NCBI GenBank assembly: GCA_021805985.1
Contig: JAJZDN010000047.1
Coordinates: forward strand, 1-32,760
Direction of reading: 5' to 3'
Source of the DNA: Planctomycetota bacterium
GTDB lineage: Bacteria > Planctomycetota > Phycisphaerae > WQYP01
DNA length: 32,760 nt
In this document: positions 4,071-24,300 of the stretch, piece after piece
How positions within the stretch are numbered: position 1 is the stretch's first letter
Layout: each line of letters opens with the position of its first letter
Translations under genes and position numbers: made by a program
Notes under the pieces: generated by a model
Databases searched by the model: none
The model's input: the letters and a program-made list of their open reading frames with translations, nothing else
What the model was told of the DNA's origin: nothing

Positions 4071-4084
4071 GACTGCGCTTCATG

Positions 4085-6178: not shown

Positions 6179-6489
6179 ACATAAGACTCCTGTATGCGTG
6201 TAAGAATCATGGACGCCAGAACACGCACCAATGGCCCACGTCCGGATGCGGCCAATGGAACGTTCGACAAAGAGCCAACCGCCGGCGGTGTGTCGGATAG
6301 AATAGCGCGCGTCGGTTTCGGCCATGCACCCATCCAAGCCGCCAGCCCGCAACGCAGGAACATCGCCAGCCCCCACGAACCGCCCTGACCGCCGGAATCC
6401 CGCCGGGCGGCACGGCGCAGGTCTTCGTAACGCTCGGTCCAGGTTTGGGTGGACTCCGTGGATTCGGGTGCGACAAAATCTACCGCCCC
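6175..6489 (-). CDS. Accessory protein of the serine element, probably reached by -1 frameshift
   Basis: From 6489 the frame reads GAVDFVAPESTEST, then QTWTERYEDLRRAARRD, then WGLAMFLRCGLAAWMGAW, and ends ESYV, 104 residues. The TGA stop overlaps the recombinase ATG as ATGA, strong evidence of translational coupling. No ATG, GTG or TTG exists in this frame near its beginning. The frame starts where the upstream helix-turn-helix gene crosses A_AAA_AAG, and a -1 slip there joins 151 residues of that protein to these 104 (255 in total). The RYEDLRR and GLAxWMxAW segments resemble small proteins I recall beside such recombinases. Function is unknown; control or targeting of the recombinase is a guess. 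Confidence 0.7.
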   Translation of the reverse strand, partial: GAVDFVAPESTESTQTWTERYEDLRRAARRDSGGQGGSWGLAMFLRCGLAAWMGAWPKPTRAILSDTPPAVGSLSNVPLAASGRGPLVRVLASMILTRIQESYV

Positions 6490-7423: not shown

Positions 7424-7454
7424 ACGTTGCGCTTCACCTGACGGATTGAGTGCA

Positions 7455-7470
7455 TTTGACAGTGTTGACA
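7455..7470. repeat. Paired TTGACA direct repeats at the right end of the serine element
   Basis: TTGACA occurs at 7455-7460 and again at 7465-7470, ten bases apart, directly against the AACG junction. One helical turn of spacing next to the crossover suggests a recombinase-binding half-site. Nothing equivalent was seen at the left end. Confidence 0.4.
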
Positions 7471-7473
7471 AAC

Positions 7474-7776
7474 GGCCGGATGGAAAGATTTTTTCGATCG
7501 CTGAAGCTCGGGCAGCGGTTGACGCTCATGGCGGCGACGACCAGCGGCATTCAGCGATGGCTTGATTCTTTTGCGGCATGGTACAACACCCACCGCCCGC
7601 ATAGCGCATTGGAATTCAGAACGCCTGAAGAAGCGTTTTGCGGGAAAGCGCTGTTGAAACCGGTGGCCTACCGCACCCGTGACGGGCCAGACATCCAAAT
7701 CCAGATCGCACGACGACATTATCGCGGTGATCCGCGACTGCCGATATTTGATATCCGTGTTCGCAAAGCGGCTTGA
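7474..7776 (+). pseudogene. DDE transposase, 3' part, displaced by the inserted element
   Basis: This is the C-terminal 100 residues of the transposase that starts at 3141. It reads GRMERFFRSLK, then AAWYNTHRPHSALEFRTPEEAF, the standard end of rve-type transposases (catalytic Glu motif followed by YN-x-HRPHSAL). It has no start of its own. The base composition and frame continue exactly from 4070, so the break is a clean insertion rather than decay. Confidence 0.92.
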
Positions 7777-7849: not shown

Positions 7850-8116
7850 TCACCCGAGAGCGGGCGTAAGATGCCGAAATTGTTCCACATATTGCCATGA
7901 TTCCATATCATCCAGCCGTTGGACAACCGCGTAATCATCCGTTATCATGAATATTAGCACCTTCACAATTAGCTGGGCCTTCACAGCATTCTGGTCGCTA
8001 ACCGGCGCATTCGAACCGGCACCTCCTGCGGCGGCGGCGGCTTGGGCACTGCCCAGCGGAAGATTTGGATTGGCAAGGGGCGACAGCACACCGGCTTTGG
8101 TACGATTTCTTTTCAT
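7850..8116 (-). pseudogene. Module E: truncated copy of the giant protein's C-terminal module
   Basis: The first ~45 residues (LANPNLPLGSAQ ... SNAPVSDQNA) match the start of the C-terminal module in the giant protein (DNPNLPLGSTQ ... SNSDQNAYNGG) and module B. After SDQNA the sequence changes to VKAQLIVKVLIFMITDDYAVV with no module similarity, stopping at 7850. It looks like a copy cut short by a rearrangement, perhaps linked to the arrival of the adjacent transposase. The ATG at 8116 is 11 bases after the membrane E stop, the same spacing as between membrane B and module C. An 88-residue peptide could still be made. Confidence 0.65.
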
Positions 8117-8127
8117 CTATCGCCGCT

Positions 8128-8577
8128 CTATTTCGGGTCTTGCTCTACCGTTCTCCGGCGGCGGGTTGGGACAATCCAAGTCGCAATCGCGTCCAAAAGG
8201 ATGCCCGCAGCCAGAATGTATGCCCCAGGATACCGGGCCGCCTCGTTGTAGCCGGCGACAAGCCAAATTGTCATTGCGCCAACCAAGAGGGAAAGAACAC
8301 GCGCCACCCAGATGATCCGGCAGGTGCCGAACATTGCCGCTCCCGCCATGAGAAGAACGCTCAGCCAAAGCGGGACGAACACGGGCGGAAACATGAGGGT
8401 GAACACCCCGATAAACGCCCAAGTTGGCACCGCCCTACCGTGGAGATTAAGGCCAAAGGTTGCAGGCAGCGACGCGATTACTACGCCCAACGCGAGCAGA
8501 ACAAGAACACGGGCAATCCAAGCCCTCGGGGCCGCCAACCGTCGCACAGTAATATCACTGGGATAATCGCCTATCAT
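8128..8577 (-). CDS. Membrane protein E, small polytopic protein of unknown family
   Basis: The 149-residue product has about four hydrophobic helices (VLVLLALGVVIASLP, FTLMFPPVFVPLWLSVLL, IWVARVLSLLVGAMTIWLVAG, YILAAGILLDAIATWIVP) and ends in a basic tail TRRRR. It resembles membrane A (FTLMFWPIGVPICLAI; ALRAISVPLG; WVIPIRRRK), so the two are paralogues. The ATG at 8577 overlaps the stop of the upstream remnant as ATGA and is preceded by GGAAGGGG. It belongs to the module/membrane cassette array. Function is unknown; an immunity or accessory role for the module is only a hypothesis. Confidence 0.7.
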   Translation of the reverse strand: MIGDYPSDITVRRLAAPRAWIARVLVLLALGVVIASLPATFGLNLHGRAVPTWAFIGVFTLMFPPVFVPLWLSVLLMAGAAMFGTCRIIWVARVLSLLVGAMTIWLVAGYNEAARYPGAYILAAGILLDAIATWIVPTRRRRTVEQDPK

Positions 8578-8768
8578 GATACCCCTTCCGCGCTGGAATC
8601 CAGCAGATTTGGGAAAACCAAATTCCATAGGTTCCGCAAGATGCTCCTTTGACACGCCACCACTGGGTCAATCGGGCCGGTGGCCCGGCCGGCGGAATTG
8701 TGGGCCAGATCACGAGGCGCCAACGGGGACGCCTCGACGCATTGTTTGAGGTTACGATCCGGGCACAT
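8574..8768 (-). pseudogene. Fused remnant: membrane-protein N-terminus joined to a module C-terminus
   Basis: The ATG at 8768 lies inside the end of module D just as the membrane B start lies inside module B. The first residues MCPDRNLKQCVEASPLAP parallel MCRDRDTGRSVAPRLPAP of membrane B. From DLAHNSAGRATGPI onward the sequence instead matches the end of module C (DLGHNSSGQI ... EILQNFWESVLSNPLDSSTVGVQ), finishing LRNLWNLVFPNLLDSSAEGVS. A deletion therefore fused a membrane gene to the next module, removing a membrane protein and most of a module. The 64-residue frame is open and coupled to membrane E. Confidence 0.7.
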
Positions 8769-9205
8769 AAGCGTCTCCCGAATTTTTCGTCCCGATGATA
8801 CTCTGGTTAAGTTCTTGGAACAGGCCATCGTTCCAGGGCGCGGAGCCAAGCGGACCAGTCAATGTGTTATTGCTCAACGTCAAAGTCAGCGTGTCAGTAT
8901 ACGAAATCGCTAAACCCGCCCAATACACCGACACGCCTGATGGATTAATGTCGTTGAACTGATATTGAGCCAGCAGCGTGTCGGACCCCAATAAACCGCC
9001 ATCGGAATACAGACTGGCAGTCGCGTAGCTGCCGCTGCCCGATGGCTGAACCTGGTAAGCCCCGCTGAGCGTCACGATCACCTGATTCTGCGCGTTGGGA
9101 GCGCTAACTATCGGCGCAGGCGGCGTATACCTTGGCACATCCAATACGGTGGCCGCGGCAGTTAGGTTGTTGAGCGTGTAGGAAATATCGGCGTAAGGCG
9201 TGGGC
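8752..9205 (-). pseudogene. Module D, 3' part, separated by the IS66 element
   Basis: This part reads MPTPYADISYTLNNLT, then VPRYTPPAPIVSAPNAQNQ, LSGAYQVQPSGSGSY and ends WNDGLFQELNQSIIG ... YVPGS. The middle parallels the giant's module (VNLPTYTPTAPVVISDN, LNGAFQVTDATSG), while the end is nearly identical to module B. Joined to 12123-12298 with one copy of the 8-bp duplication it makes a 209-residue frame without stops. It was therefore an intact coding frame when IS66 entered. The MP start here is a by-product of the insertion. Confidence 0.8.
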
Positions 9206-9213
9206 ATCGAATC
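9206..9213. repeat. 8-bp target duplication, left copy
   Basis: ATCGAATC directly flanks the left IS66 terminus and is repeated exactly at 12123-12130. Eight bases is the standard target duplication of IS66 elements. Confidence 0.95.
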
Positions 9214-9236
9214 GTGTCCGTCCTACGAACCCCATC
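9214..9236. repeat. IS66 left terminal inverted repeat
   Basis: Begins GTGTCCGTCCTACGAACC and pairs with 12100-12122 with one mismatch at the nineteenth base. Confidence 0.93.
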
Positions 9237-9295
9237 TTCCAATGTGAATGAGGATATGAGAATCTGTTGGCGTCGCAAGCAAAAGGAGACAAGCG

Positions 9296-9769
9296 ATGTC
9301 GATGGAACGTGTTGGACAGGCCCCTTACCCGCAGCATCACGGGCGGGAATTCTGGATTCTGGCTTTGGAATTGCAACGTGAAAGCGGTCTGACGCCTGCG
9401 GCGTTTTGCCGGCGGGAGGGGATCAGCGATAAGGCTTTTTGGCGTTGGAAGCGTAAGTTATCGCAATCCAGGCAACCGGCCGACGCACCGGTGGCGTTCT
9501 TGCCGGTGACGGTAACAGATGGCCGACCGGTGCATTCTTCGCAAGCGGCCGTCACCGGCAGATCGGGCGAAGATTTGCCCACCTGCGCAGGCGTCAGTTC
9601 CGACGCATCCCCACTTACCGACTCTCAGGCTGCATCGCCTGTTACAGCATTGTCTGCACAGATTGAACTTCATATCCATCTGGCCAATGGGCGTTGTGTT
9701 CACGCACATGTACCCGCCGAGGCACATGGACTGCAATCAGTACTTGCGGCCGTGGAGGCTTTACGATGA
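9296..9769 (+). CDS. tnpA: IS66 accessory protein TnpA
   Basis: The 157-residue protein has the IS66 Orf1 layout. Its N-terminal helix-turn-helix region reads FWILALELQRESGLTPAAFCRREGISDKAFWRWKRKL, followed by a variable middle and a short C-terminal strand region (IELHIHLANGRCVHAHVP ... LQSVLAAVEALR). TnpA of IS66 is needed for transposition and probably binds DNA. The ATG at 9296 has AGGAG seven bases upstream. Its TGA overlaps the tnpB ATG as ATGA, so the two are translationally coupled. Confidence 0.9.
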   Translation: MSMERVGQAPYPQHHGREFWILALELQRESGLTPAAFCRREGISDKAFWRWKRKLSQSRQPADAPVAFLPVTVTDGRPVHSSQAAVTGRSGEDLPTCAGVSSDASPLTDSQAASPVTALSAQIELHIHLANGRCVHAHVPAEAHGLQSVLAAVEALR

Positions 9770-10191
9770 TAACACTGCCAAGCCTTCGGGATATGGATCG
9801 TTGCGTACCCATGCGGATATATCTGTGCCTGACCCCTGCGGACATGCGTTGGGGCTTTTATACGCTGGCCCAGATTGTTCAGCAGGCCATGCAAGCGGAC
9901 CCTCTGTCCGGGGACCTGTTTTTATTTACCGCCCGCCGCAGAGATCGCCTGAAAATCCTGTACTGGGATCGCGATGGACTGGCGCTTTGGTATAAGCGAC
10001 TGGAACAAGGGGCGTTTCGGATTCCCAAACCTGCCCATAGTTCCGCTGCTGTGGAACTGACGGCCAGCGAACTGGCGATGTTACTGGAAGGTATTGATCT
10101 GGGCAGTATCCGACGGTCCCCACGGTACGCCAAGCCCGCAGCGGCGGTGAACCTCACAGGTCCGACGGCGGGCGTTGCAGGCGGGACATAA
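9766..10191 (+). CDS. tnpB: IS66 accessory protein TnpB
   Basis: This 141-residue protein is the IS66 Orf2 type, with YLCLTPADMRWGFYTLAQIVQ, DPLSGDLFLFTARRRDRLKILYWDRDGLALWYKRLEQGAF and ASELAMLLEGIDL, all standard for the family. It is required for IS66 transposition by an unclear role. The start at 9766 is chosen because GGAGG lies seven bases upstream and the ATG overlaps the tnpA stop. The frame is open further upstream inside tnpA, but that part is a shadow. Confidence 0.93.
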   Translation: MITLPSLRDMDRCVPMRIYLCLTPADMRWGFYTLAQIVQQAMQADPLSGDLFLFTARRRDRLKILYWDRDGLALWYKRLEQGAFRIPKPAHSSAAVELTASELAMLLEGIDLGSIRRSPRYAKPAAAVNLTGPTAGVAGGT

Positions 10192-10259
10192 CATAATCGT
10201 GATAGACATAACGCTATTACCTGATATTAAAATAATAGTAATATACATGACAATATGAC

Positions 10260-10288
10260 TTGACATGATAGACCCGATCCGTTATACT
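10260..10288 (+). promoter_or_regulatory. Internal promoter for tnpC, probably giving a leaderless mRNA
   Basis: TTGACA (10260-10265) and TATACT (10283-10288) are 17 bases apart, a near-consensus sigma-70 promoter. The tnpC ATG starts at 10296, about where transcription would begin. No Shine-Dalgarno is seen before that ATG. Confidence 0.7.
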
Positions 10289-10295
10289 CTCTGTC

Positions 10296-12047
10296 ATGTT
10301 GAACGCCGCGTTACCTGATGATCCCGCCGCCCTTAAAGCCCTGCTGCGTAAGCAGCGGCGGGAACACCTGCAGCAGATCGTCGCCGTTCAGAACCGCGTT
10401 GACACACTGGAACAAAACGCCCGGCAATGGGAATCCCAGGAACAGACACTGGCCGCCCGCCAGGCGGAATTGACAGCTCGTCTTACGGAATTGCAGAAGC
10501 GCAACGACGATCTGGCCATGGACAAGCTGCGTCTGCAATACCGGCTTAACATATTGCTGCAACACCATTACGGCTCCCGTGCCGATAAGATCAGCACCGG
10601 ACAACTGTTGTTGAAATTTGCCGAACTGCTGGAAGAAAAGCCGCTGGAATCGTCCCAGGATTCCCTGACAGAACCCGATTCGGCCGACTCGTCCACGACC
10701 GGCCTGACGCCTGTGAATGCCGTTACAGAACCCACGCGGCATATTCGCAAGGGACGGCGGGATGTGGAGAATATGAAACATCTGCCGATACAGCAGTGCC
10801 TTCATGACCTTCCGGAATCGGAAAAAGCCTGTCCGGTCTGTCAGCAGCAACGGCAGGAGATGGGACGGGATTCCAGTTGGCAGGTGGAACGCATTCCGCC
10901 CCACTTTGTGCGTATTGAGCATATCCAGGTCAAATATGTCTGCCGAAGCTGCGAGCAATCCGCCGCCGAGACCGGTTCGCAGATTGTTCTGGCGGACAAA
11001 CCCGAGGCTCCCATTGCCAAGGGATTGCCGGGGCCGGGGCTTCTGGCGCATGTGGTAAGCAGCAAATTCGCAGATCATCTGCCGCTGTATCGTCTGGAAG
11101 GGATATTTGCCCGGCAGGGATTTGACGTTACCCGTGGCACGATGTGTCAGTGGATGACGGATGTGGCCGATCTGGTTAAGCCGGTGTATGACGTAATGGT
11201 CCAGGAAGTCAAAGCCAGCCATGTGACGGCCACGGATGACACGATCATGCCGCTGTTGGCTCCGGAAAAGACCAAAAAAGCCCGGATGTGGATTTACCGG
11301 GGTGATGCGGAACATGCTTACAACGTCTTTGACTTTACCGAAAGTCGCAGTCGGGATGGTCCTGCGACATTTTTGGAAGGCTTTAATCAGACACTGCTGG
11401 CTGATGCGTATGGAGCCTACGATGGTATCTGCGTGGAAGGCAATATGACCAAGGCGGGCTGCTGGGCCCATGCGCGTAGAAAGTTCACGGATGTCAGTCC
11501 CATGGCACCGGAGATTGCCAGGGAGGCCGAGCACCTGATAGGTAAGCTCTTTGATCTGGAACGCCAGGCCCAAAAGCAGAACCTTGACCCGCAGGCCCAT
11601 CTGGCCCTGCGCCAGGAGAGAAGTGTGCCGATTCTGGCTCAACTCCATGAGAGGTTGCTGCACTGGAAAGCCACGGTGCTGCCCAAGCATCCGGTTAACA
11701 CAGCGATCGGGTATTGCCTGAACCAATGGGAATCCCTGAAGGTCTTTACCAGAGACTCGGCGGTACGAATGGATAACAACTTGGCGGAACAGGAAATGAA
11801 GCGTATTGCCCTGGGGCGAAAGAACTTCCTGTTTGTGGGGTCTGTCCGCGGCGGCCAAACCGCCGCCATCCTGGCCAGCATGACCAGCACCTGCCGCCGC
11901 CACGAGATCAATGTGGAATTGTATCTCACGCAATTGCTGGCCAATCTGCCCTCCACACCCATCACGCAGGTCCGCCAATGGCTGCCCGATGTCTGGAAAC
12001 AGCGCCAACTCGCTGAAAACAAAAGCGTTCTGATTCGCCAGGCCTGA
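10296..12047 (+). CDS. tnpC: IS66 transposase TnpC
   Basis: The 583-residue protein is the IS66 catalytic transposase. It has an N-terminal coiled coil rich in Glu, Gln and Leu (about residues 18-95), an acidic linker, a zinc-finger-like segment (CPVC and CRSC, about residues 178-220), the DDE core and a C-terminal IS66 tail. The core shows TATDDTIMPLL, LLADAYGAYDGI and DNNLAEQEMKRIALGRKN, which hold the catalytic acids. HAxRKF and FLFVGSVRGGQTAAIL are further family marks. It cuts and joins element ends, producing the 8-bp duplication. A promoter lies directly upstream, separate from tnpAB. The long antisense frame over this gene is a shadow. Confidence 0.96.
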   Translation: MLNAALPDDPAALKALLRKQRREHLQQIVAVQNRVDTLEQNARQWESQEQTLAARQAELTARLTELQKRNDDLAMDKLRLQYRLNILLQHHYGSRADKISTGQLLLKFAELLEEKPLESSQDSLTEPDSADSSTTGLTPVNAVTEPTRHIRKGRRDVENMKHLPIQQCLHDLPESEKACPVCQQQRQEMGRDSSWQVERIPPHFVRIEHIQVKYVCRSCEQSAAETGSQIVLADKPEAPIAKGLPGPGLLAHVVSSKFADHLPLYRLEGIFARQGFDVTRGTMCQWMTDVADLVKPVYDVMVQEVKASHVTATDDTIMPLLAPEKTKKARMWIYRGDAEHAYNVFDFTESRSRDGPATFLEGFNQTLLADAYGAYDGICVEGNMTKAGCWAHARRKFTDVSPMAPEIAREAEHLIGKLFDLERQAQKQNLDPQAHLALRQERSVPILAQLHERLLHWKATVLPKHPVNTAIGYCLNQWESLKVFTRDSAVRMDNNLAEQEMKRIALGRKNFLFVGSVRGGQTAAILASMTSTCRRHEINVELYLTQLLANLPSTPITQVRQWLPDVWKQRQLAENKSVLIRQA

Positions 12048-12099
12048 TAATCCGTTCCTCATGCCCGCAGATTATCCCCTATCAGAAAACTCCCCGGTA

Positions 12100-12122
12100 G
12101 ATGTGGTTCGTAGGACGGACAC
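12100..12122. repeat. IS66 right terminal inverted repeat
   Basis: Ends GGTTCGTAGGACGGACAC, the complement of the left end at 9214-9236 with one mismatch. Confidence 0.93.
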
Positions 12123-12130
12123 ATCGAATC
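12123..12130. repeat. 8-bp target duplication, right copy
   Basis: ATCGAATC, identical to 9206-9213, directly after the right IS66 terminus. Confidence 0.95.
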
Positions 12131-12252
12131 CGGCCCGCCCAATTCAAATGGCGCGGACATATAAGGCGAAGAAATACTCTCATCCACCCCCCGGCCCATG
12201 GCCAGCGTTGCGGCTAAGAATGGAACATAATCATTCGGCTCGGCCGCCGCCC

Positions 12253-12276
12253 AGTGAAAACTGAACACTGAAAACC
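12253..12276. repeat. Short imperfect tandem repeat of ACTGAA type
   Basis: On the plus strand AGTGAAAACTGAACACTGAA then AACC repeats an ACTGAA(A)AC unit. It lies exactly where module D loses similarity to its paralogues, so it marks the likely deletion joint. Simple repeats of this kind are common between genes in some GC-rich bacteria (recollection, unchecked). Confidence 0.5.
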
Positions 12277-12312
12277 GTGATCTGTTTGCATACACCATCA
12301 CGTTTCCCCCAT

Positions 12313-12852
12313 TCAGGAATCCCGATTGGCGTCGATCGCGGTGCGTTGTTTTCCACCTTTTCCGGCGGCCTTCCTATCATTTTTCCGGGGCGGAATCAGC
12401 CAGACTCCGATGAAGATCAGCATGCTGCCTAGAGCGAGAGTGGGGAGCCCAAAGAAAAGTGGCCTAGACGGCGACCACAGGTACAGCCACGCGATGGCCG
12501 GAGCTACCAGAAGGCCCAACGACGCGGTGCGAATGCACCAGCGCACGGCGGCCGGTGTCGGTCGATAGAAACCGGCCACGAGCGAGGCGATCGCGCCAAG
12601 GTAATAGATCCAGAAAACCGGTGCCAACTCCGGCGTAGCCCCCGCTCGCCCAAATAGGGTCGTCGCCGCCATCAACATCAGGTACCAGAGAACTACGTAG
12701 GCCCCCGTCGTTCCGAACGCCACTCCCGGCATCCAGAGCGACACGAAGCACACAACCCAGCCGAGGGCGTAGATCGTCCAGGCAATCGTTGAACGTAGGT
12801 TGGAGGGGGTGCCGCGCTCACCCTCCATCGTTTGGGCGATTTTTTCCGCCAT
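12313..12852 (-). CDS. Membrane protein C, small polytopic protein of unknown family
   Basis: The 179-residue product has about five hydrophobic stretches (AWTIYALGWVVCFVSLW, AYVVLWYLMLMAATTLF, VFWIYYLGAIASLVAGFY, ASLGLLVAPAIAWLYLW, LALGSMLIFIGVWLIP) and a basic C-terminal tail. It is related in layout to membranes A, B and E, all ending in a WIIP-like segment plus basic residues. The ATG at 12852 overlaps the module C stop as TGATG, with GGGGGTG upstream, so it is coupled to module C; a GTG at 12855 is possible. Function is unknown. Its fixed pairing with a module suggests that the two products work together. Confidence 0.78.
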   Translation of the reverse strand: MAEKIAQTMEGERGTPSNLRSTIAWTIYALGWVVCFVSLWMPGVAFGTTGAYVVLWYLMLMAATTLFGRAGATPELAPVFWIYYLGAIASLVAGFYRPTPAAVRWCIRTASLGLLVAPAIAWLYLWSPSRPLFFGLPTLALGSMLIFIGVWLIPPRKNDRKAAGKGGKQRTAIDANRDS

Positions 12853-13853
12853 CACTGCACCCCCACCGTGCTAGAATCAAGTGGATTTGAAAGCACTGAT
12901 TCCCAGAAGTTCTGCAAGATTTCCGCCGGGCTGGGTATCACTGCGCCCGTCGGGCAGATGATCTGGCCACTGGAATTGTGGCCCAGATCAACCACGAGCG
13001 AATAGCTCCACGCCAGCCCGTTCCATGTCCCCGCGTAACCTGATGTCGGCAAATCGTCCTCGTAGAGCAGGTGGCTGTTTGTGTCGTAAAGCTTGACCTC
13101 ATAGGAGTTTGATGTTGAGTCCGTGGCCTGGAATGCACCGTTGAGCGTAATCTGAATCGCTCCGGTGGGGCTATCGGCGGTGATCGCGGGTGTGGCTGGC
13201 GTGTATGCAGGAAGGTTCACCTGCGTTGCGGGCGACGTGAGATTACCAAGCGTGTAGCCCACCAGCGCATACCCTGTAACACCGTCATCCTGCACGCCAG
13301 CAAAAGTTGGGCCCGTGACACCCTGCGTCAGACCCCGGCCCATCTCAAGGGTATTAATCTCGAACGGGACATAATCATTCGGCCCAGCCGCCGACCACGC
13401 ATTGGCGTTAAGGGTGAGGCCCGGGTCGCCATATTTAATTGTGGCGGTGTCCATCGTGTCGTTGAAGCCGGTGTAGCCTCCCACGGAATCGAACTCTGGC
13501 GAGACCAGCGAAATGGTGATGCCAGTCTCGAGCTGACTCTTTTGCACCATACCGGTGAGCACCGGATTTTTAATACCAGCGCCGGCAGTAGCACCGGTTG
13601 TGACGGACAAGTCCCAAGTAGTCGTATTATAATCGCTGTTGTCCAGCCGCACACCGACAATAGCGTCTGGATTCAGACCCGCGTTTGTAACCTCCGTGCC
13701 GGCACCGTTGACACTCGTCCCGCCATTGTACGCGTTGCGATCCGACACCGGCGCATTCCAGCCAGTTTGGCCGGACGGATCGGCGGCGGCTGCGGCATCT
13801 GCGGCTTCGGCGTTGCCCGGCGAGGGCGTTGGATTAGAAAGCAACGCCAACAT
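12852..13853 (-). CDS. Module C: free-standing copy of the giant protein's C-terminal module
   Basis: The 333-residue protein parallels the last ~330 residues of the giant gene over its length: NAYNGG, GLNPDAIVGVRLDNSDYNT, NPVLTGMVQKSQL, ISLVSPE, AAGPNDYVPFEINTLEMGRG, VNLPAYTPATPAI, LNGAFQATDSTS, LYDTNSHLLYEDD, AGTWNGLAWSYSL, and an FW-containing end. It starts near the hydrolase/module border of the giant (LLSNP vs LDNPNLPLGS) and lacks the hydrolase. No signal peptide is evident, so it cannot be exported by a standard Sec signal. The ATG at 13853 has GGGAGG upstream, 11 bases after membrane B. The family is unrecognised; it looks beta-rich. Confidence 0.82.
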   Translation of the reverse strand: MLALLSNPTPSPGNAEAADAAAAADPSGQTGWNAPVSDRNAYNGGTSVNGAGTEVTNAGLNPDAIVGVRLDNSDYNTTTWDLSVTTGATAGAGIKNPVLTGMVQKSQLETGITISLVSPEFDSVGGYTGFNDTMDTATIKYGDPGLTLNANAWSAAGPNDYVPFEINTLEMGRGLTQGVTGPTFAGVQDDGVTGYALVGYTLGNLTSPATQVNLPAYTPATPAITADSPTGAIQITLNGAFQATDSTSNSYEVKLYDTNSHLLYEDDLPTSGYAGTWNGLAWSYSLVVDLGHNSSGQIICPTGAVIPSPAEILQNFWESVLSNPLDSSTVGVQ

Positions 13854-13864
13854 AGCGCCTCCCG

Positions 13865-14392
13865 TCAAAAAGTCCCATTTTTTTTCCTCCCCGGTAACCG
13901 CAGTTTAATCCAATAATAAAGGCCGGGCAGGGTGCTAATAAACATCAAACTACAGCCAACGGCGAAAACAACACCGCCGTAAAGATCGTGACCGCAACGC
14001 GCATCAAAGCCAGCAGATGCTAATATCCAACCAGCGAGTAGCCCCGACGACAGGAGTGGTCCCAGCAGCGAGGCCATCGGGCCGCCCGGGCGAAAAACCG
14101 TTATCACGCACGTCAGGGCACCTATCCAGAACCACAGCCCGATTAATGGAAGCCAAGGCATTGCAACCGCAACAATCAGCGAAAATACCACTGAGGCCGA
14201 AATCAGGTACCATGTCGGAAACGCATTGCAGTTGTTGAACCCAAGGTATGCTGCGGGCATCTGCAACGACGCTGCGCATGTCGCTACCCCAACAATACAC
14301 ATCGCACGCACGGCAATCTTGAGCGCCGGAGTTAATACTGGCGCAGGGAGACGAGGTGCAACGGACCGGCCTGTGTCACGATCCCGGCACAT
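13865..14392 (-). CDS. Membrane protein B, small polytopic protein of unknown family
   Basis: The 175-residue product has about five hydrophobic stretches (IAVRAMCIVGVATCAASL, WYLISASVVFSLIVAVAMPWL, IGLWFWIGALTCVITVF, SLLGPLLSSGLLAGWILAS, GGVVFAVGCSLMFISTLPGLYYW) and ends in LRLPGRKKNGTF. The ATG at 14392 lies inside the last codons of module B, with AGGAGA upstream. The overlap of about 17 bases lets the YVPGS codons double as the MCRDRD start. It belongs to the same loose group as membranes A, C and E. Longer upstream starts are shadows of module B. Confidence 0.77.
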   Translation of the reverse strand: MCRDRDTGRSVAPRLPAPVLTPALKIAVRAMCIVGVATCAASLQMPAAYLGFNNCNAFPTWYLISASVVFSLIVAVAMPWLPLIGLWFWIGALTCVITVFRPGGPMASLLGPLLSSGLLAGWILASAGFDARCGHDLYGGVVFAVGCSLMFISTLPGLYYWIKLRLPGRKKNGTF

Positions 14393-14858
14393 AACTGTCT
14401 CCTGAGCTAAAGTTTCCGATGATGCTTTGGTTAAGCTCTTGGAACAGGCCATCGTTCCACGGTGCTGATCCCAGCGGGCCGGTAAGCGTGTAATCGCTGA
14501 GTGCAAGGGTGTCATCATAACTTGCATTATAGGAGAAATTCACCCCTGCGGTAAGTTGCGACACATGCACCATCCCCGTGAACACGGGATATTGCGCACC
14601 GGCATTGTTATACGCATCCCAGCTTGTTAAGTTGTAATCGGTGCCGTCCAGTTTTACACCGACAATCGCACCTGGATTCAGGCCGGTGCCGGAAACTTCC
14701 GTGCTGGAGCCGGAGTTCGTTCCGCTCTGGAGAACGTTGCCGGCGCTGTTGCTGTATGCGTTCCGGTCACCGACAGGCGGCTGCCATCCGTTTGTGCCCG
14801 CGGCGGTCCTTTGGGAACTGCCCAGCGGAAGATTAGGATTGGCGAGGAGCGATACCAT
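14376..14858 (-). CDS. Module B: shortened copy of the C-terminal module
   Basis: The 160-residue protein starts MVSLLANPNLPLGSSQ and runs through GDRNAYSNSAGN, GLNPGAIVGVKLDGTDYNLTSW and YPVFTGMVHVSQLTAGVNFS, matching the giant's module. It then jumps to an end TLTGPLGSAPWNDGLFQE ... YVPGS shared with module D. Compared with module C the middle third is absent, so it looks like an internal deletion that kept the frame. The ATG at 14858 overlaps the membrane A stop as TGATG, with GGAGG upstream; an ATG at 14861 is an alternative. Confidence 0.8.
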   Translation of the reverse strand: MVSLLANPNLPLGSSQRTAAGTNGWQPPVGDRNAYSNSAGNVLQSGTNSGSSTEVSGTGLNPGAIVGVKLDGTDYNLTSWDAYNNAGAQYPVFTGMVHVSQLTAGVNFSYNASYDDTLALSDYTLTGPLGSAPWNDGLFQELNQSIIGNFSSGDSYVPGS

Positions 14859-15349
14859 CATTCGCCTCCGACATTTGGGGCGGGGCCTTCGAAGGGCGAT
14901 AAAGGTTTCCGCCGCCGGATGGGGATGACCCAAGGTGACAGCACAAACGCCGACATCACGAACGCTCCCCGATAGTCGAAGGGATTTCCTGTTTGTAATT
15001 CATTGGTGATGCCCCATGCCACATAGCACCCCAATGGAACGGAAATGGCTCGCAGTGCCCAGATAAGCCACGCCCTGCCTAAAAGTACCGACCAGAAACC
15101 GCCGAGGGCCAAACAAAATATAGCGAGGCAAATCGGAACCCCTATAGGCCAAAACATAAGCGTGAATTTCAAATCTACCTGCCAATTGGGAAGGCTATAG
15201 CCGTCAATGCCCCAAATGGACTGACCACCGCCGAACTCGTAAACCAACAGTGAAACCACTCCTTCCAGTACGAAGGCCAACCCAATCAATTTCCTGGCAC
15301 CCACCAAAACTTTTAGCATCAGACTTTTGCGGTCATCCAGCCTTCCCAT
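14858..15349 (-). CDS. Membrane protein A, coupled to the giant gene
   Basis: The 163-residue product has four clear hydrophobic stretches (ARKLIGLAFVLEGVVSLLVY, FTLMFWPIGVPICLAIFCLAL, WLIWALRAISVPLGCYVAWG, GAFVMSAFVLSPWVIPI) and a basic RRRK tail. The ATG at 15349 overlaps the giant gene's stop as TGATG. The Shine-Dalgarno GGAGGTG (15355-15361) lies inside the giant's last codons, so its translation depends on the giant being read to the end. It is paralogous to membrane E. Position and coupling suggest a partner, anchor or protective protein for the giant's C-terminus; no family is recognised. Confidence 0.82.
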   Translation of the reverse strand: MGRLDDRKSLMLKVLVGARKLIGLAFVLEGVVSLLVYEFGGGQSIWGIDGYSLPNWQVDLKFTLMFWPIGVPICLAIFCLALGGFWSVLLGRAWLIWALRAISVPLGCYVAWGITNELQTGNPFDYRGAFVMSAFVLSPWVIPIRRRKPLSPFEGPAPNVGGE

Positions 15350-18300
15350 CACTGCACCTCCACGGTGCCGGAGTTATAGCCGGAATCGCTGGTGACACCA
15401 GCCTGCCAGAAATTTTGAAAAATGTTCAGCGGGCCGGCATAAGAACCATCTACACCAATTATGTTACCGTTGGAATCATGATTCAATATCGCTGCCAGCG
15501 AGTACGTTAACGCCAATCCATTCCAGACACCGAGAGGTTCCGCGGCGGCGGAAACGTCGTCCTCCCATAGCAGATGACTGTTGCTATCGTAAATTTTTAC
15601 ACTGTATGAAGTCGGACTGCTGCCTGAAGTTGCATCCGTCACTTGGAATGCGCCATTAAGTTGAAGCTGAATCTGACCGGTGGGATTATCCGAGATCACC
15701 ACCGGCGCGGTCGGCGTATAGGTTGGCAGATTCACTTGCGTATCGGGCGAAAGAATGCCCCCCAGACTGTACTCCACCATAGCGGCCTGGGTGGCGGAGT
15801 CCGCCTGCACACCGTTGAGGGATGGGCCGGTGATGCCCGGGGCCACCGACCGCCCCATTTCCAGTGCCGATATTTCAAAGGGCACGTAGTCACCTGGCCC
15901 GGCGGCGGCCCACGCGGTAGGGTTCACCAACACGCCTGCTTCACCGTAGGTTACCGCTACCGAGTCCAGTGTATCCAGGGGGCCAACATATCCGCCGTGT
16001 TCATTTTCAGGCGACACAAGTGAAATGGTCAAGCCATTGACTAACTGGCTCTTGGTGGCCATGCCGGTAAGAATTGGCTTTTTGACGCCAGCACCTGCAT
16101 TCGGGCCGGTTGTCACGGAAAGGTTCCATGTTGCCGTGTTGTAATCAATTCCATCGAGCTGCACGCCGACGATGGCAGATGGATTCAGGCCGGCACCAGT
16201 GACCTCGCCATTGGACCCAATTTTACCGCCGTTGTAGGCATTCTGGTCTGAGTTTGAGACCACGAAGGCCTGATTCTGCGTGCCGTTGCTGGGTTGGATG
16301 TCCTGGCGCTGTGTGCTGCCGAGCGGCAAATTCGGGTTATCCAACCAGGCTAGAACTTGTGCTTCAACTTGCGGGTCAGACTCAAGGTTAATATGGTCCA
16401 TGTTCACACCGTAGTCATAAGCTGTGTCCGGCAGCATGGCGCTATAGGTCGGCACGATAGAGTCGTTGTTCGCGCCGTCAAGTTGCTGGATCCATGGAAA
16501 ATAGGAACCGCCGTTGGGGCCTAGCGGCTGGATATCGCCGAAAATCGGCAACTCAGTAAACGGTACAGGCCCCTCGAATTTTTGTAATTCGGTGTGTGTC
16601 CCATATACCGCCGCATACGAGACACCATTACTGAACACGGCGGCGAGCGCATTAAGCTGCGCCAACAGCGGGCTGTTAATAGCGGCGTCTTCAAAGAATG
16701 GATAAGGATTGGCCCCGTTCGGGCTTGTCGCGAGGTAGCCCTGGCTCTGCATCCAGGTGAGGACGTTCTTCTCGGTGTGCCCTCCAAGCGTGCCCAGCAG
16801 TCCTGAGTTGATTTGTGCATTACCAATTGTCGGATTGCTATATATCGCGTCAATCATATTCGCTAACGGCGATCCCAAATTCGGCGTGCCGATTTCAACC
16901 AGGCTGCGAATATTGCGGAAATCCTCAAACAGCTTGCCGCCGCTGGAGTTCGTGGCCTGTTCCATGTACCAGCGCGTCAAAAGCCCGCCATAGCTGTGCG
17001 CTACCACATCCACTTTCTGAACCGCGATCAACGTCCCCTCGGCAAGGCCGGTGGGGACGAGGGTCGGATTGCCCGAGGGAATATCGGGATTGTAAATGGA
17101 GTTATTCACCAGCCCGTACCGGAAGTCTTCGATCGTGGCTTCCACCGCGTTCTGGACAGACTGCCAATCGCTGGTCAGCGGTCCGGATCCGTAGTCGTTG
17201 GCGGCACCGGAATGATCCGCAAATGAGAAGGGCGTAATAATATATTTCTGGCCTTGCAGCGTTTGCGCCATTCCACCCGGCCCCTGCCAGGCGGAATAGG
17301 GATCACTGTTGATTCCATGCACAAACACCACCGGCGGGCGTGTGAGCATCAGCGCGCCGGGCTTCGCACCGGCATACAGAGGCGGCAGAGTGGTATTGGA
17401 ATAGTTCAGCGATACACCGACATGGATTTGCCGGAAAAAGGCATTGCTGCTTTCGCCCTGCGGCAGAAATTCCGCCGGCGGCTCGTAGAACTGCGTGCCC
17501 AGAACGTCCAGCGCCGCCCCTCCGGCTGCGGTGCCTTCCCATCGGGTTGAGCCTTGGGCGGGGTTGGTGTTGGTCTGCACGCCCTTCAGCGCTGTATCAG
17601 CGGTGAGATTGGACTGCCAAGTGCTCAAGGGCAACAATTCTCCATTACTGCCATCGGATTGCAACGAATAAATACCCGTACCAATATGCGGGAAGAGTTG
17701 GCCGAAATCGAGTGTCAGGTTGCCTTGGTGGATCAGATTCTCCAGTGCCTGCGAGCCTACCGCCCGCACCAGCAGCAGTGAGCCGTCATCGACACCATTT
17801 TGCCAATCGGCGGCAATGCCGCCGGGTTGCAAGTTTGGCGCAATACGGTTCTGGTCCATGTTGGTGGTAAATGCCTTAGTGGGGTTGGCGTGCGAGATTC
17901 CGGTGACATCGGTATAGACCAATTGCAGGCTGGCGACAGTTACATTTACCTTATCGGAAATCGTATTATCACCGCTGGCAAAATCCCCGGTTGGATCAAT
18001 CTTGACCGTGATGGTCACGGGGTTCGGATCACTGGGGTTGACGCCTTCGACATAAAGATCGGTCAGTGAACTGGACCCCTTGAGGATATCCGACAGCGGA
18101 ATGGCCGTATTATCAGGGATAAAATTGCCACCGGAGAGAATGCTGGCCGAGTTGCGCGGCGTGGTGGAATCGGCATTCCATATACGCAGGTATCCGCCGG
18201 AGCCGGGGGAATAAGTATCAATGCTCCCGGAACTGGGGGATGTCTGGGTGACGCTGGCGGGATCAGCGGCGGAATAATTAAATTCAACATAGGCACTGGA

Positions 18301-21300
18301 TGGATCAGCAATACCCAGCGCCGAAAGCTGGAGCGGCGCAAAAGTACCTTCCGGCAGACTATCGCCTGCGCCGGCGGCGATGGTGCTGATACCGTCGGCG
18401 TAGCCGGGGATGTTGTTGCCGTTAACATCCAAGGTATCGGCGATGATCACCTTGCCGGTTCCGGAGGCCTTGCCGGATTCATCGGCAGCGGTGATTTGGC
18501 CGTTGTTGTTGGTGTCCATAAGCAGATCGACGGTGGGCTTGGTGACGTTGAAGAAGATGGTGGCGTAGTTGCTTTGGGTGCCGTTGGGATCTTTGAGGGT
18601 GTAGGTGACGTAATCGGTGCCGACGAAATTCTTGTCCGTCGGCGTATAGGTGAAGCTGCCATCGGAATTGGGTGTGAACGTGCCGTGCTTAGGCGTCTGG
18701 TCAATGATTTGACCGAAGGAGATCGTGGGCGCGGTTTGACCCGCGGGGACGTTGATTTCATAAGCAGGCGGTTGCGTAAGCGGACTGTTGGAGGCTGCGA
18801 CGGTGAGGGTAGTGCCTTGCTGAACAGAGAAGGTATCGGGAAAGGTTGGGGCCAAAGGGGCTGACGGTGCCACTGCCGGGGGCGCTACAGGGAATTCGTT
18901 GGGGGTGAAGGTCGTACCCTCGCTTCCGTCGATATCATTTGAATCGGTTGGATCGCCGTCGCCGTCCCCATTCTTCTGTTGCCCGCCGACGAAATTCACG
19001 CTGGCAATGTTACTGGTTTCCAGCACATTGGAAGCGCTGGTGCCGGCGAGATGGTCGGTAACGTCAAAGGTGAAGGATGCATTCGGCAGGCTGCCCCCCG
19101 ATGCCAGCGGGGTGAAGCTGTACGTGTAAGCGCCGGTCGTTGGATCAACAGTGACACTTCCAAAGGCGGGCTGGGCCAGCAGCCTGTAGGTGAGCGGGTT
19201 GCCGTTCTGATCGTAGGCCCCCAGCGTCCCGGAAATCGTCCCGCCGCTTTGCGGGAAGTTCTGTACGTTGCTTTCCGCCTCCGGTATCTGGTTGGCGACT
19301 TGCAGCGTCACAGTGCCTTGCTCACTGGTTACCGCCGCCCCGCCTTGAGGCGTGTATTGAACGGTATATGTGAAGCTGTCGGTTCCATAAAATCCACTGC
19401 TGGCGGTGTAGGTATAAGTTCCGCTGCTGGAACCTTTTGCCAGCTTTCCATGCTGCGGCTGGCTGTAGGATGCTATAGAGATTTGCGCGTTGGCTTCCGA
19501 GCCGTCGTTGGGAAGGGGCACCGAGGCGTCGGAAAGCAGGTTGATCTTATACTGCTGATCATTATTCGGGCTGAACGCAAGGTTGGGTGCCGTGGGTGCC
19601 GGGGCGGTGACGGTGGCGGAAATCCAGCTTGAATCAGCCGACTTCCCGCTTGAATTCGTGCCTTGGAGTTGGAACCGATAGGTGCCCGGTTGCAGATATG
19701 ATCCCGAACCGATCGTCTGCGGGGTGAACTCAAAGCTCGCCTGGCCTGACTGCAGACTGCTGACAGAGTTGTAGGTGCCGGTAGGCGTTTCATAATTCAG
19801 AATCAGCGACGCATTGTATACCGACGGATCGCTCCACACCAATCCGATTCCCTGAACAGTGGCACCAATCACCGCCAGACCGGTGGGTGCCAGGGGTGGC
19901 TGCATTGAGGGATTGACATAGCCGGCACTGGATGTGGTTCCATCGGAGAACGTTGCGGCGACATAAGCGGACGAGCCGGCGGTATTGGCGGCGGCAACCT
20001 GGTATTGGTAAACATCTCCGGCGGCAACGGCGGTGTCCTGATAGGAATATGCGCCGGCGCTGACGGTTTGGATGGTCTGCCAACTGCCGCTGGAAGTCAC
20101 ATCTTCACGCTGGATGACAAAACTTGTCGCGGGATTGCCGCCTGATCCGGCCACCCAATTCAGGTCGATCTCGGTGGGCGAACTTTGTGTGGCATCGACA
20201 CTGGTCGGCGCGGCGGGCGCGGCGTTGGCGGGTGTGCTTGCGGAGACCGCGGTGAATCCGGAGTTTCCACTGGAATTTACCGCAGCCACCTGGTAACCGT
20301 AGCTTTCACCGGCGGAAAGTCCGGTGTCATCATAACTGGTGGTGGAAGCGGAGAGTGCGGCCAACGGAACCCAAGTGCCATTAAAGCTTTGCTGTTGCAC
20401 CACAAAGCCGGTTTCATCACTGGTGGTGTCATTCCAAGAAAGATTAATCTGTGTGGACGATACGGCGGTCGCCGTCAGACCGGTGACCGAGGCGGGGATC
20501 GCGGGGATCGTGACGCCGACGGTGCCGCTATTGGTGTAGCCGCCGCCGCCATTGAGGATTTGGACACGAAGATCATAGGTGGTTCCGGGCGTAAAGGGTG
20601 AGGTGGGGTTCCATGCGAAACTGGTAAATCCCGGGGTCAGCGGTGTGGATGTAACATTCGACCAGCTTGTTCCGCCATTGGTGGAATCCTGAATATTAAA
20701 GCCATAGGTACTGTTGGATGGATCAGTCCACGCCAGATCGATTTCACTGCCGGAGACGAAGGTGGCGTGCGGATTCAACGCCGATCCGTCGAGAGTGTAA
20801 ATGGGACCGGCGGCGGACGCGGTGGAGTTGTTGTTGGAGGGGCCGTTGGCGATAACCTGGTAATAATAAGGCCCGGTGCCGGTAACGGACGTATCGTTAT
20901 AACCGGTTGCAGTTGCCGCAAGCGCGGTTGGGGTAAGGCTGGTCCATGTTATATCGTCCGTGCTCTGCTCAACGGTATAACCGGTAGCGCCGGCGGAAGC
21001 CGTCCAGGAAAGACCAATTTCAGTTGCCGAGACGGCAATAGTGGTGAAATTCGCCGGCGACGCGACCAGCGTTGTCGCCGAAGCGGTGTCGGACGGTGCC
21101 GCCGCGGATTCGGCGGAGCCGTTGGCGGCGATGATCTGGAAGGTATAAGTTTGATTGGGCAGCAGGTTGGTTACGGTTGCTGATGACGCGTTGCCCGATG
21201 CGTAGAGAACGGCCGCGTATGTGGCACCGCCATCGGTTGAATCCTCAATAATCATGGCTTCAGCGACATAAGAGTTGTTCGTCCACGTCAGCGTGGCGGA

Positions 21301-24300
21301 GGTAGCTGTAACGCCGGTGACGGCGAGATTCGTTGCCCCGGCGGGGATGACCGCCACAGCCTGCGTGGCGCTGCCTGTGCCGTCGTCATCGGTGGCGAAG
21401 GCGGTGATGGTCGGTTCCGGCACTCCGGCGGCAAAGGTGTGGTTTATAGAGGCCGGCGATCCGGTAATGTTCTGGATGGGCGTTCCATCACCCCAGTTAA
21501 TGCTCCAACTCGTAACACTGTCTCCATCAGCGGTGGTGGGAGAAAGAGCCAGCGTGTAGGCTTGGCCTTCCGATACCGTGGATGTCCCGGAAATAACCGG
21601 TTGTGGCACCGCGTCGACAACCTGCGCGACAATGGGTGCGGCGGCTATAGAACCGGAAGCCGTTTGCGCGGTGATGGTGATGGTGTAATTGGCGGTACCA
21701 TCGGGGTAGAAATGGGTATCGGAAGTTACGCTGCCGGACAGTGTGTCGGCTGTTGTTCCATCGCCCCAGTTAATCTTCCAACCGGTCATGGCGGAAAAAT
21801 TATTGGTTGATAGATTCAACATATACGGCTGGTTTTCCAAAGCCGGTGGCGTAAGCGAACCGGAAATTTGGGGCAGACTGGCCGGGATTGTTACACTCAG
21901 TGATTGGGCACCGATCACAACGCCATCAGTGGATGCGCCGGCGGGATCGGACATCGTCAAGCCCGCGAGGATTGTGGCATTGCTGAACATGACGTTTTCG
22001 CTGGTGCCGATCTGCGCCCAACCGGAATCGCCGGTGGAATAGGAGTAATACGCGGAAACCGTGTCGCCCCAGCGGACCAGCCGCACCTGCACCGGCAGCG
22101 TTACACCGGTCACCACAGGGGCTGATTGTTCGGTTGCGCCATCTGAGGCAATCCACTGGAACGTCAGATCACCGCTATTGGAAACCATCACCAACGCCAT
22201 CGCCGCGCCGGAATTAGTTGAATCCACGAATGCTACACCACCGGCCAGCTGCGAGTTGGCTCCGGTAAAACCGAGGATTTGGGCGGTTACAGTTCCGCTG
22301 CTGGAAGCCAACGGCTGAATCGCGCTATTTGTGAGACCGGCCCCGGAGAGCAAATCCATCTGCGAAGCGGTTTGCTGGGCGATGGCAACGCCGGCCGCCT
22401 CGGCCAAGCCATTTTCAACATCAAGTACCGAATTAGTATTCAGCGTAAGGTTGCTATCCAGCGTCACACCGCTGAAGACGGTTGGGCTGGAACTTGTGCC
22501 GCCGACTTGCAGATAGCCGCCGGTCGACCCGAGCTTAACTCCTGAGATCGTATTATCAAAAATAATGGTGTTACCTGGATTCGCGCTGATGTAACCCGCA
22601 CCGGAAACACTGACTCCATTGCTGAAGGTGACGGTAGAACCGACTGCGCCGGTAGCGTTCACCTGTCCGGCGATCGCGTACACGTCGCCAGCGTTAAGGA
22701 TAAGGCTTCCGGCACCGCTGACGTCTTGGCTGATTCCGGGACTGCTGTCGAAACTCAACATGCCGCCCGCCTCGATTGTCAAAGTCTCGCTGTTTCCAAT
22801 CGCCAGATTTCCTCCGATATTGAGCGCTGCGCTGGGGGCGATGGTGACCGGTCCCGTCGTTCCGGCCGCGACGGAGAAACCGAGACCGGAATCATTGAGC
22901 GTTCCGCTGACGGTGGTGGTTCCGTATCCGTTGTTCGTCCAATTGGAGATGTCCAGGGTTGCCAAGTTTCCGTTATCCACCAAGTTCAGTAAACCGCCAT
23001 CATTTGCGATGGCACCGGCGTTAGTGACAGTTCCCCCGGCTTGGCCAAGAGCCAATGCGCTAGCGCTGCCAATGGTAACGCTGCCCCCGGATAGCAAGGT
23101 GAGTGTTCGGATATCGGCGTTGAGATACCCCCCACCGGAAGCCGCAAGCGATCCCGTGCTGGACATTGTCGATGCCAGCACTTCCAACATTTGTCCCGAA
23201 ACATTTCCTATGATCGTGCCACTGTTGACGGCGGTTCCAACACCGTTGTTCGCCACATCAAATTGGCCCGTCCCTTCGATTGTGCCGATGTTGTTAAAAA
23301 GTGGGGAAGATTGGTTTGAGGTCGCTTCAACTACGACCAGACCGTTGAGGTCGATCGTGGCGGCGCTATCAATATTTCCCAAGTCGCTGGCAATGATTCC
23401 ATCTCCGCTAATGAGCAATCCGCCGGTTAGCGTTGCCGTTCCGCCGCTATATGATGCGGCACTGAGCAAACCGCTCGTGGTATTGGTCAGGGTAAAGCCG
23501 CCGCTTGATCCGGGTAGAACAGCAAGCGGTGCCGCTCCGCCGCTGGAAGTGAAGAGGTAAAGGGATGATACCCCCTGATTCAGCACCGCGCCCGTCTGGA
23601 GGTACAAGCCGTTTGAACCGGGGAAATAGACGTTCATACCGCCGTCGATATTGACCGTCCCGGCCAACGTCACATTACTCAAGGTCAGGCTGGTTTGGCT
23701 GGAGCCGGAAAGAGCAACCGGGCCGTTACTCCCGTCGATCGTTCCGCCGGTAACCGTCTCATTATTGACGTTCCATGAACCGGCAGTCGAGGTGTCCAGA
23801 AGTGTTGAACCGCTGTTATTCAGCGTGCCGCTTAAATTGATCGCGCCGCCGTCATTGGTGAGTGTCGTGGAGCTGAGAGTGTCGTTGCCGGCGATGTTCA
23901 GGGTGGTACCGGCGTCCACGATCACTGGCACCGAAATGGTTCCCCCGCTCCAATTTCCGATGTCTGTCAGTGTCAACGCGCCGCTGGCATTCCCGGTTAG
24001 CGTTCCTCCGGTCATCGTCAGGTTGTTGGCGATGATTGCCGCGTTGAATGTCAATGTGCCTCCGGTTAACTCAATGGCACTTGTGCCCGAAGCTTGCAGT
24101 GCGGTCCCCGCGTCCAGCGTACTGATACCACCACTGAAATCGATGACACCTCCAGCCGCACCGAATGTCCCACTGTCCACGCCGCCGTCGGCAATCTGCA
24201 ACGTACCGGTAGTTGCCTCCACCGTGCCGCCGCTGTTATTCAATGCGCCGCCGGCTGTCACGTTTCCGGCGGTGTCCAGAACAGCCCCGGCGTTGACTGT

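What the first reader, a model, noticed from the sequence alone, without database searches (positions are those of the whole stretch)
7850..16345. Array of module/membrane-protein pairs behind a giant protein, laid out like a polymorphic-toxin locus
Seen: the giant gene ends in a ~330-residue module and overlaps a small membrane-protein gene (TGATG). Downstream are three more module copies (B, C, D), a fused remnant and a truncated copy (E), interleaved with membrane proteins B, C and E. All are on one strand and tightly coupled, and none of the copies carries the giant's N-terminal domains or hydrolase. Known: CDI and Rhs loci place orphan C-terminal/immunity pairs behind the giant effector, often with IS elements. 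Inference: this may be an undescribed effector-plus-partner cassette system, with membrane proteins as cognate protectors or anchors. Against it: the modules stay similar along most of their length instead of swapping toxin folds.
Basis: partly seen in the sequence, partly recalled or inferred. Interest (0 to 1): 0.82.

Follow-up and report, generated by a model that had tools for sequence, protein, structure and literature searches.

The report
Swappable protein-tail and membrane-partner array
Behind a giant surface-type gene of an uncultured planctomycete sits a row of spare protein tails, each overlapping a gene for a fast-diverging membrane protein, laid out as bacteria lay out reserve toxin and antidote pairs, although no toxic activity has been shown.

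Summary
The minus strand carries the 3' end of a giant gene (hydrolase-like region + module A) followed by traces of five more module/membrane units, one split by IS66. Neither protein reaches a curated Pfam or NCBIfam cut-off. They occur together: modules in 12 of 28 genomes of the family; the membrane family in 11 of 61 relatives, all module-positive. Tail stop and membrane start overlap by 1 nt (class 1) or 17 nt (class 2) in 20 of 25 cases. Modules share an N-terminal joint beginning NPNLPLGS, then split into two C-terminal classes. A tail 89% identical to the giant's is fused to an RHS-repeat protein in a sister species, with a membrane partner only 36% identical. Membrane genes stay open where modules are stubs; some are tandem-fused. 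The layout matches CDI/Rhs orphan cassettes and polyimmunity loci; proteins and carrier appear new. Most likely: a polymorphic effector system with integral-membrane immunity-like partners, restricted to one planctomycete family. Toxicity, delivery and cognate specificity are inferred; tail/membrane co-variation is only moderate.

The parts
15349..32760 (-). Carrier: giant repeat-protein gene, 5' end beyond the window (6,434-codon open frame in the near-identical contig of G004)
16348..17418 (-). Hydrolase-like region of the carrier, ending at the module boundary; below Pfam cut-offs here (DUF7379 E=1.3e-6), the G017 relative passes the Lipase_2 cut-off
15349..16347 (-). Module A (class 1 tail), C-terminus of the carrier; boundary motif at 16315-16338
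14858..15349 (-). Membrane protein A (163 aa), start overlaps the giant's stop by 1 nt
14376..14858 (-). Module B (160 aa, internal deletion, class 2 tail); boundary motif 14817-14840
13865..14392 (-). Membrane protein B (175 aa), start overlaps module B by 17 nt
12852..13853 (-). Module C (333 aa, full, class 1 tail)
12313..12852 (-). Membrane protein C (179 aa), 1-nt overlap; four helices in the model
12123..12301 (-). Module D, 5' piece (replaced N-terminus, then profile positions 121-167)
9214..12122 (+). IS66-family element inside module D (TnpB 9694-10191, TnpC 10296-12047), flanked by GATTCGAT at 9206-9213 and 12123-12130
8752..9213 (-). Module D, 3' piece (class 2 tail)
8574..8768 (-). 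Fused remnant: start of a lost membrane protein D joined to the class-1-like tail of a lost module E
8128..8577 (-). Membrane protein E (149 aa)
7850..8116 (-). Module F, truncated after ~35 module residues; boundary motif 8048-8071
7450..7776 (+). Integrase (rve_3) fragment that ends the array

Best explanation
A polymorphic effector locus of the CDI/Rhs kind with new parts. Shown from sequence: a giant carrier with a hydrolase-like region ends in a C-terminal module whose stop codon overlaps the start of a small polytopic membrane protein; further module/membrane units queue behind it; modules share a joint beginning NPNLPLGS and then split into two C-terminal classes; one tail is found on an RHS-repeat carrier in a sister species; membrane genes stay open where modules have collapsed to stubs. 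Inferred: the carrier is exported (in G004 it lies beside HlyD-like, outer-membrane-efflux and SecA-like genes) and presents its C-terminal region to neighbours; that region acts at the membrane; the membrane protein protects its owner; the array is a store of spare tails, recombined at the joint, and of immunity genes against kin.
For: Co-occurrence: 11 of 11 membrane-positive genomes among 61 are module-positive. Coupling: of 25 membrane ORFs, 13 overlap the upstream frame by 1 nt, 7 by 17 nt, 4 by 0-8 nt, 1 has no convincing coupled frame. Joint then variable tail: between-class identity 0.63-0.70 in columns 1-100 and 0.23-0.33 in columns 263-393, against 0.55-0.78 within class there; in G017 two modules of different class share 210 nt at 87% and then stop matching. 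Carrier exchange: in G001 111 residues 89% identical to the end of module A are fused to an RHS-repeat frame (PF05593 above cut-off). A G017 orphan unit keeps part of the hydrolase region ahead of its joint, as orphan cdiA-CTs keep carrier sequence (PMC3150448, passages). Asymmetric decay over 11 loci: 29 membrane ORFs (32 domains, coverage >=0.75) against 7 full modules (coverage >=0.9); in stub-only arrays dN/dS is 0.276, 0.45 and 0.636. Tandem-fused membrane proteins in G022, compare polyimmunity proteins (PMC3482391 section 39). IS66 in an orphan module. G003 is 99.97% identical to the window over 12,771 nt, then switches inside module D to class-1-like sequence.
Against: No toxicity test and no known toxin fold; the hydrolase + module model failed (pLDDT 31.5). 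Tails are conserved within a class while partners diverge; precedent exists (76% CdiA-CT with 35% CdiI, Fig. S1 legend of PMC3150448) but it weakens one-to-one pairing. Membrane type E sits behind class 1 in the window and class 2 in G023, type A behind both class-1 subtypes; within class 2 the correlation is not significant (r=0.171, p=0.26). Stand-alone modules have start codons but no hydrophobic segment (0 of 15 rows), whereas CDI orphans generally lack translation initiation signals. The G003 switch lies 113 nt from a contig end. G000, G003, G004 and G005 carry practically the same DNA, so they count once. dN/dS has no significance test.
Confidence: 0.5

Rival explanations
1. Anchor or assembly partner: the module is a structural C-terminal domain of surface proteins and the membrane protein is its dedicated anchor or export helper; the array is tandem duplication.
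For: Tails are conserved within class and nearly every one is coupled to a membrane gene; two of 15 module rows weakly resemble an Ig-like family (NF058592, best E=0.0019; cut-off 45 bits).
Against: Membrane genes stay open, with dN/dS below 1, in G007, whose only module matches are tail stubs; partners diverge far more than the tails they would hold; two- and three-fold fusions.
Confidence: 0.2
2. Self-recognition without killing: the conserved tail is a surface ligand and the diversifying membrane protein a receptor or identity marker.
For: Fast-diverging membrane proteins against slowly changing tails; tail on several carriers.
Against: Stub-only arrays keep receptors without ligand in the same genome (G007); no signalling domain found in the membrane proteins.
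Confidence: 0.15
3. Decaying tandem duplication of a gene 3' end and its neighbour, shuffled by IS elements and homologous recombination, without a dedicated conflict role.
For: Many truncated or internally deleted modules and an IS66 insertion; recombinases and integrase fragments nearby.
Against: Membrane frames stay open far more often than modules; overlaps are kept at exactly 1 or 17 nt across three genera; same tail on an RHS carrier.
Confidence: 0.15

Closest known systems
CDI loci with orphan cdiA-CT/cdiI arrays (PMC3150448, passages)
   Same: Large carrier, exchangeable C-terminal cassette behind a conserved peptide, downstream small gene, orphan pairs, IS disruption, orphans that keep pieces of the carrier, immunity proteins that can diverge more than the toxin (76% vs 35%).
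   Different: No VENN motif or CdiB gene was seen in the regions read; export-type neighbours in G004 are HlyD/OEP-like; new module and membrane families; orphan modules keep start codons; only two tail classes, which look homologous; no toxin shown.
Rhs/YD-repeat polymorphic toxins (PMC3150448)
   Same: In G001 a class-1 tail is fused to an RHS-repeat frame and followed by a coupled small gene.
   Different: The window's carrier is a giant repeat protein with a hydrolase-like region, not an Rhs protein; the tail is no known Rhs toxin.
Polyimmunity loci and polyimmunity proteins (PMC3482391 section 39)
   Same: Same-strand paralogous small genes close together (L007, L045, L103) and tandem-fused copies in one polypeptide (L043).
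   Different: Stubs of the module remain between the genes; the window array still holds a full module C; the paper's listed extended loci were not in planctomycetes.
CDI ionophore toxins with membrane CdiI (PMC11630599, abstract and passages) and T6SS Ssp4 with four-helix Sip4 (PMC12669606, passages)
   Same: Integral-membrane immunity proteins; CdiI within a group share about 30% identity.
   Different: CdiI there are 72-100 residues with two helices; no sequence relation tested or expected; modules here have no hydrophobic segment.

Membership tests
Polymorphic toxin (CDI/Rhs-type) locus | Carrier with an exchangeable C-terminal region behind a conserved junction | tested here: met
   Joint and two tail classes, boundary motif, same tail on two carriers
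Polymorphic toxin (CDI/Rhs-type) locus | Adjacent small immunity-type gene with each C-terminal cassette | tested here: met
   24 of 25 membrane ORFs overlap or abut an upstream tail or stub frame
Polymorphic toxin (CDI/Rhs-type) locus | C-terminal region is toxic and the neighbour neutralises it specifically | not testable with these tools
   Needs expression; co-variation is only moderate
Polymorphic toxin (CDI/Rhs-type) locus | Structurally unrelated toxin folds exchanged | tested here: inconclusive
   Two tail classes, 0.23-0.44 identity beyond column 100, align over their length; module model failed
CDI (cdiBAI) proper | Two-partner secretion gene cdiB and VENN motif | tested here: inconclusive
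   No such Pfam match among 5 upstream ORFs of G004 tested nor in the giant; whole genomes were not searched for CdiB
Homogeneous polyimmunity locus | Tandem same-strand paralogous immunity genes without intervening toxin genes | tested here: inconclusive
   L007, L045, L103: three or four membrane genes with only module stubs between; not met in the window, where module C is full; immunity function untested
IS66 element | IS66 transposase genes, inverted ends, 8-bp target duplication | tested here: met
   (that 8 bp is typical is recalled)
Claudin/TARP or LetA-like membrane fold | Four helices with a beta element between helices 1 and 2 | tested here: inconclusive
   Model pLDDT 68.8; no Foldseek match at E<=0.001; best Z 11.3 to LetA 9n8w_A (rmsd 3.2, 148 aligned), claudins about 8, within the range of chance for helical models

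The most novel reading that the evidence does not exclude
A previously undescribed, family-restricted conflict system of uncultured Planctomycetota: giant surface proteins next to a type I-like export set carry exchangeable C-terminal modules of unknown fold that attack or engage the cell membrane, each paired with a member of a new, rapidly diversifying four-helix immunity family that is also stockpiled in stub arrays and as two- and three-fold fusions.
Probability: 0.4. Interest if true: 0.78.

Novelty: new variant of a known kind. Interest (0 to 1): 0.6.

Why it matters
If true, it adds two protein families and a new carrier type to polymorphic effector systems, and offers a natural series of membrane partners against two conserved tails, in which immunity specificity, retention of orphan immunity genes and cassette exchange can be tested directly. 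Even if no toxin is found, conserved tails with diversifying membrane partners would point to a self-recognition system.

Tried and rejected
Structure of hydrolase + module A with 7 rows: pLDDT 31.5, unusable and not searched. Membrane fold search: no Foldseek match at E<=0.001; LetA and claudin-like rows may be chance. PDB profile searches: nothing better than E=0.16 (module) and 0.42 (membrane). PADLOC: nothing at E<=0.1 for 6 proteins. Pfam on the 23 membrane proteins: single-member matches to 4 families at E 0.0011-0.043, taken as chance. Plasmids by tblastn and viral contigs, module C only: no relatives. Genome contigs with one module: only the G017 contig itself, a Planctomycetota MAG, isolate FK4.bin106. 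Phylum sample with the module profile: 1 of 392, the own genome (table shows at most 5 candidates scored per genome). Class sample with the membrane profile: 13 of 298, of which 11 are the known genomes and 2 are marginal (E=5.2e-6 and 4.7e-4), not pursued (at most 12 scored per genome).

Rejected: membrane protein as toxin with the module as antidote, because open membrane genes persist in G007, whose module matches are tail stubs only.

The first co-variation run used two mis-framed tails and is discarded; one search replaces it. One search used 21 of the 25 membrane ORFs; L007_C, L045_C, L041_4 and L042_2 were left out. The near-identical arrays of G003, G004 and G005 were left out. Novelty in print was judged from search listings and four papers: PMC11630599 (abstract, passages), PMC3482391 (passages, section 39), PMC3150448 (passages), PMC12669606 (passages); none was read whole, and most subscription papers are not held.
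Full report
The observation. Every element lies on the minus strand. The giant frame (15349 to beyond 32760) ends in a 332-residue module A that begins where the hydrolase-like region ends. Behind it follow memA, module B, memB, module C, memC, module D, a fused remnant, memE and module F. A and C are full; B lacks its middle; D is split by an IS66 insertion between two copies of GATTCGAT; the ORF at 8574-8768 joins the start of a lost membrane protein D to the tail of a lost module E; F keeps about 35 residues. So there are traces of six units. Similarity between copies is far from chance (module C against A: E=1.7e-99).

Families. No module or membrane protein reaches a curated Pfam or NCBIfam cut-off in the searches made (the last three list E-values only for most rows, and the best are weak). 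The 23 membrane proteins aligned are 12-77% identical to the first, with an invariant Gly and Trp, two to five hydrophobic segments by a simple scan, and four helices in the one model made (memC, pLDDT 68.8). None of the 15 module rows has a hydrophobic segment.

Carrier. The window's contig ends inside the giant. Blocks of the G004 contig match the window at 99.98-100%, and that contig holds a 6,434-codon frame. Its matches are a legume-lectin domain, fn3, bacterial Ig, PKD and cadherin-like domains, then the hydrolase-like region, which stays below Pfam cut-offs in the window while the G017 relative passes that of Lipase_2. By eye the region has the Ser, Asp and His motifs of such enzymes (motifs recalled). 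Upstream genes in G004 match HlyD (two genes), an outer membrane efflux protein and SecA above cut-off, and an M50 peptidase below it, so a type I-like export route is plausible; that is inference. The N-terminal LEPRLLL stretch recalls a motif of giant surface proteins; no call confirmed it (one search gave no match).

Distribution. Modules: 12 of 28 genomes of the family, 3 of 11 genera; 1 of 392 phylum genomes, the own one. Membrane family: 11 of 61 relatives, which include the 28 family members, and all 11 are module-positive. The one module-positive genome without a membrane match is G025, with one tail and at most a fragment of a membrane gene. G000, G003, G004 and G005 share practically the same DNA here, so 12 counts as about nine independent cases. 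The hydrolase-like region gives strong matches in G000, G003, G004, G005 and G017 and weak ones in three more genomes (8 of 61 in all).

Cassette anatomy. The DNA pattern for the NPNLPLGS boundary hits 17 places in 7 of 28 genomes, all at module starts in these arrays (9 places if near-identical arrays count once), against 0 for the reversed control. Identity between the two tail classes along nine alignment bins is 0.63, 0.70, 0.42, 0.24, 0.37, 0.44, 0.33, 0.31 and 0.23; within class the last three bins are 0.66, 0.58, 0.55 (class 1) and 0.72, 0.73, 0.78 (class 2). In G017 modules 2 and 3 share 210 nt at 87% and then stop matching. The frame upstream overlaps the membrane start by 1 nt in 13 of 25 ORFs and by 17 nt in 7; four overlap by 0-8 nt, one has no convincing coupled frame.

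Exchange between carriers. In G001 the last 111 residues, 89% identical to module A, are fused in frame to an RHS-repeat frame that runs off the contig. Its membrane partner is 36% identical to memA. In G023 two class-2 tails (C84 and C7) follow a shared stretch that looks YD-like to me but has no Pfam match. In G017 one array unit carries about 230 residues of the hydrolase-like region ahead of its class-2 module; the other hydrolase unit, on contig C49, starts abruptly inside sequence that corresponds to the giant, so it is not behind an intact giant. In G003 the DNA is 99.97% identical to the window for 12,771 nt and then changes inside module D to class-1-like sequence, 113 nt before the contig ends; assembly error is possible.

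Decay and selection. Over 11 loci, 29 membrane ORFs with 32 domains pass 0.75 coverage, against 7 modules at 0.9 or more. Seven of the 29 follow a full module; 22 follow a partial module, a stub or nothing that the profile sees (one of these modules is cut by a contig end). In the stub-only arrays of the own genome (C152) and G007, dN/dS is 0.276 (memB), 0.45 (memA) and 0.636 (memC) (simple Nei-Gojobori counts, no significance test). G022 has membrane proteins fused twice and three times.

Co-variation. With corrected tails, tail identity correlates with membrane-body identity: r=0.496, p=0.0002 for 21 pairs; r=0.371, p=0.0012 for 15 dereplicated pairs. Membrane identity within against between tail classes after dereplication is 0.239 against 0.209 (p=0.034). 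Within class 1 r=0.252 (p=0.026, 13 pairs), within class 2 r=0.171 (p=0.26, 8 pairs). The two class-1 subtypes show no difference (0.246 against 0.248). Pairs are not independent. So partnership is shown; one-to-one specificity is not.

Comparison with the known. PMC3150448 (passages) describes orphan cdiA-CT/cdiI pairs behind the main locus, some split by IS elements, some keeping carrier sequence, with an orphan CdiI that is expressed; its Fig. S1 legend gives 76% CT identity with 35% CdiI identity, a precedent for conserved tail and diverged partner. PMC11630599 (abstract, passages) describes small hydrophobic CdiI with about 30% identity within a group. PMC3482391 (section 39) defines polyimmunity loci and proteins. 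PMC12669606 (passages) describes a T6SS effector with a four-helix inner-membrane immunity protein. These match the layout. What differs is the carrier, the joint, the protein families, the start codons on orphan modules, and the lack of a shown toxin. I therefore file it as a new variant that works like a polymorphic effector/immunity array, not as a proven toxin system.

Confidence. One half for the conflict-system reading; anchor (0.2), self-recognition (0.15) and decayed duplication (0.15) share the rest.

Noticed in passing
window 17791-17869 (+): ARAGORN calls a tRNA-Cys on the strand opposite to the giant gene, inside its coding region; real or chance not resolved.
   Followed up: no
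window 4085-6376 (-) and 3141-4220 (+): A large serine recombinase and an rve integrase lie just beyond the array's end; recombinases are also reported next to some polyimmunity loci.
   Followed up: partly
window 713-1540 and 1762-3030 (+): A SapC-family protein next to a radical SAM/SPASM protein.
   Followed up: no
window about 12255-12301; L043:12260 and 14663: A 'FSVFSF' stretch replaces the module N-terminus in module D and in two G022 modules, at the point where G003 departs from the window: a possible recombination sequence.
   Followed up: partly
L036, L037, L038 (G004, G005, G003): Genomes held as different species of the genus carry this locus at 99.97-100% DNA identity over blocks of 5-20 kb: recent transfer, or one contig binned several times.
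   Followed up: partly
L106:1537-10235 (G004:C177): SecA-like, M50-like, two HlyD-like and one outer-membrane-efflux gene just upstream of the giant: a candidate export set.
   Followed up: partly
window 26417-32760: The giant's own 5' half is built of diverged tandem repeats of 120-260 nt, and the repeat region of G004 also matches it at about 75% out of register.
   Followed up: no
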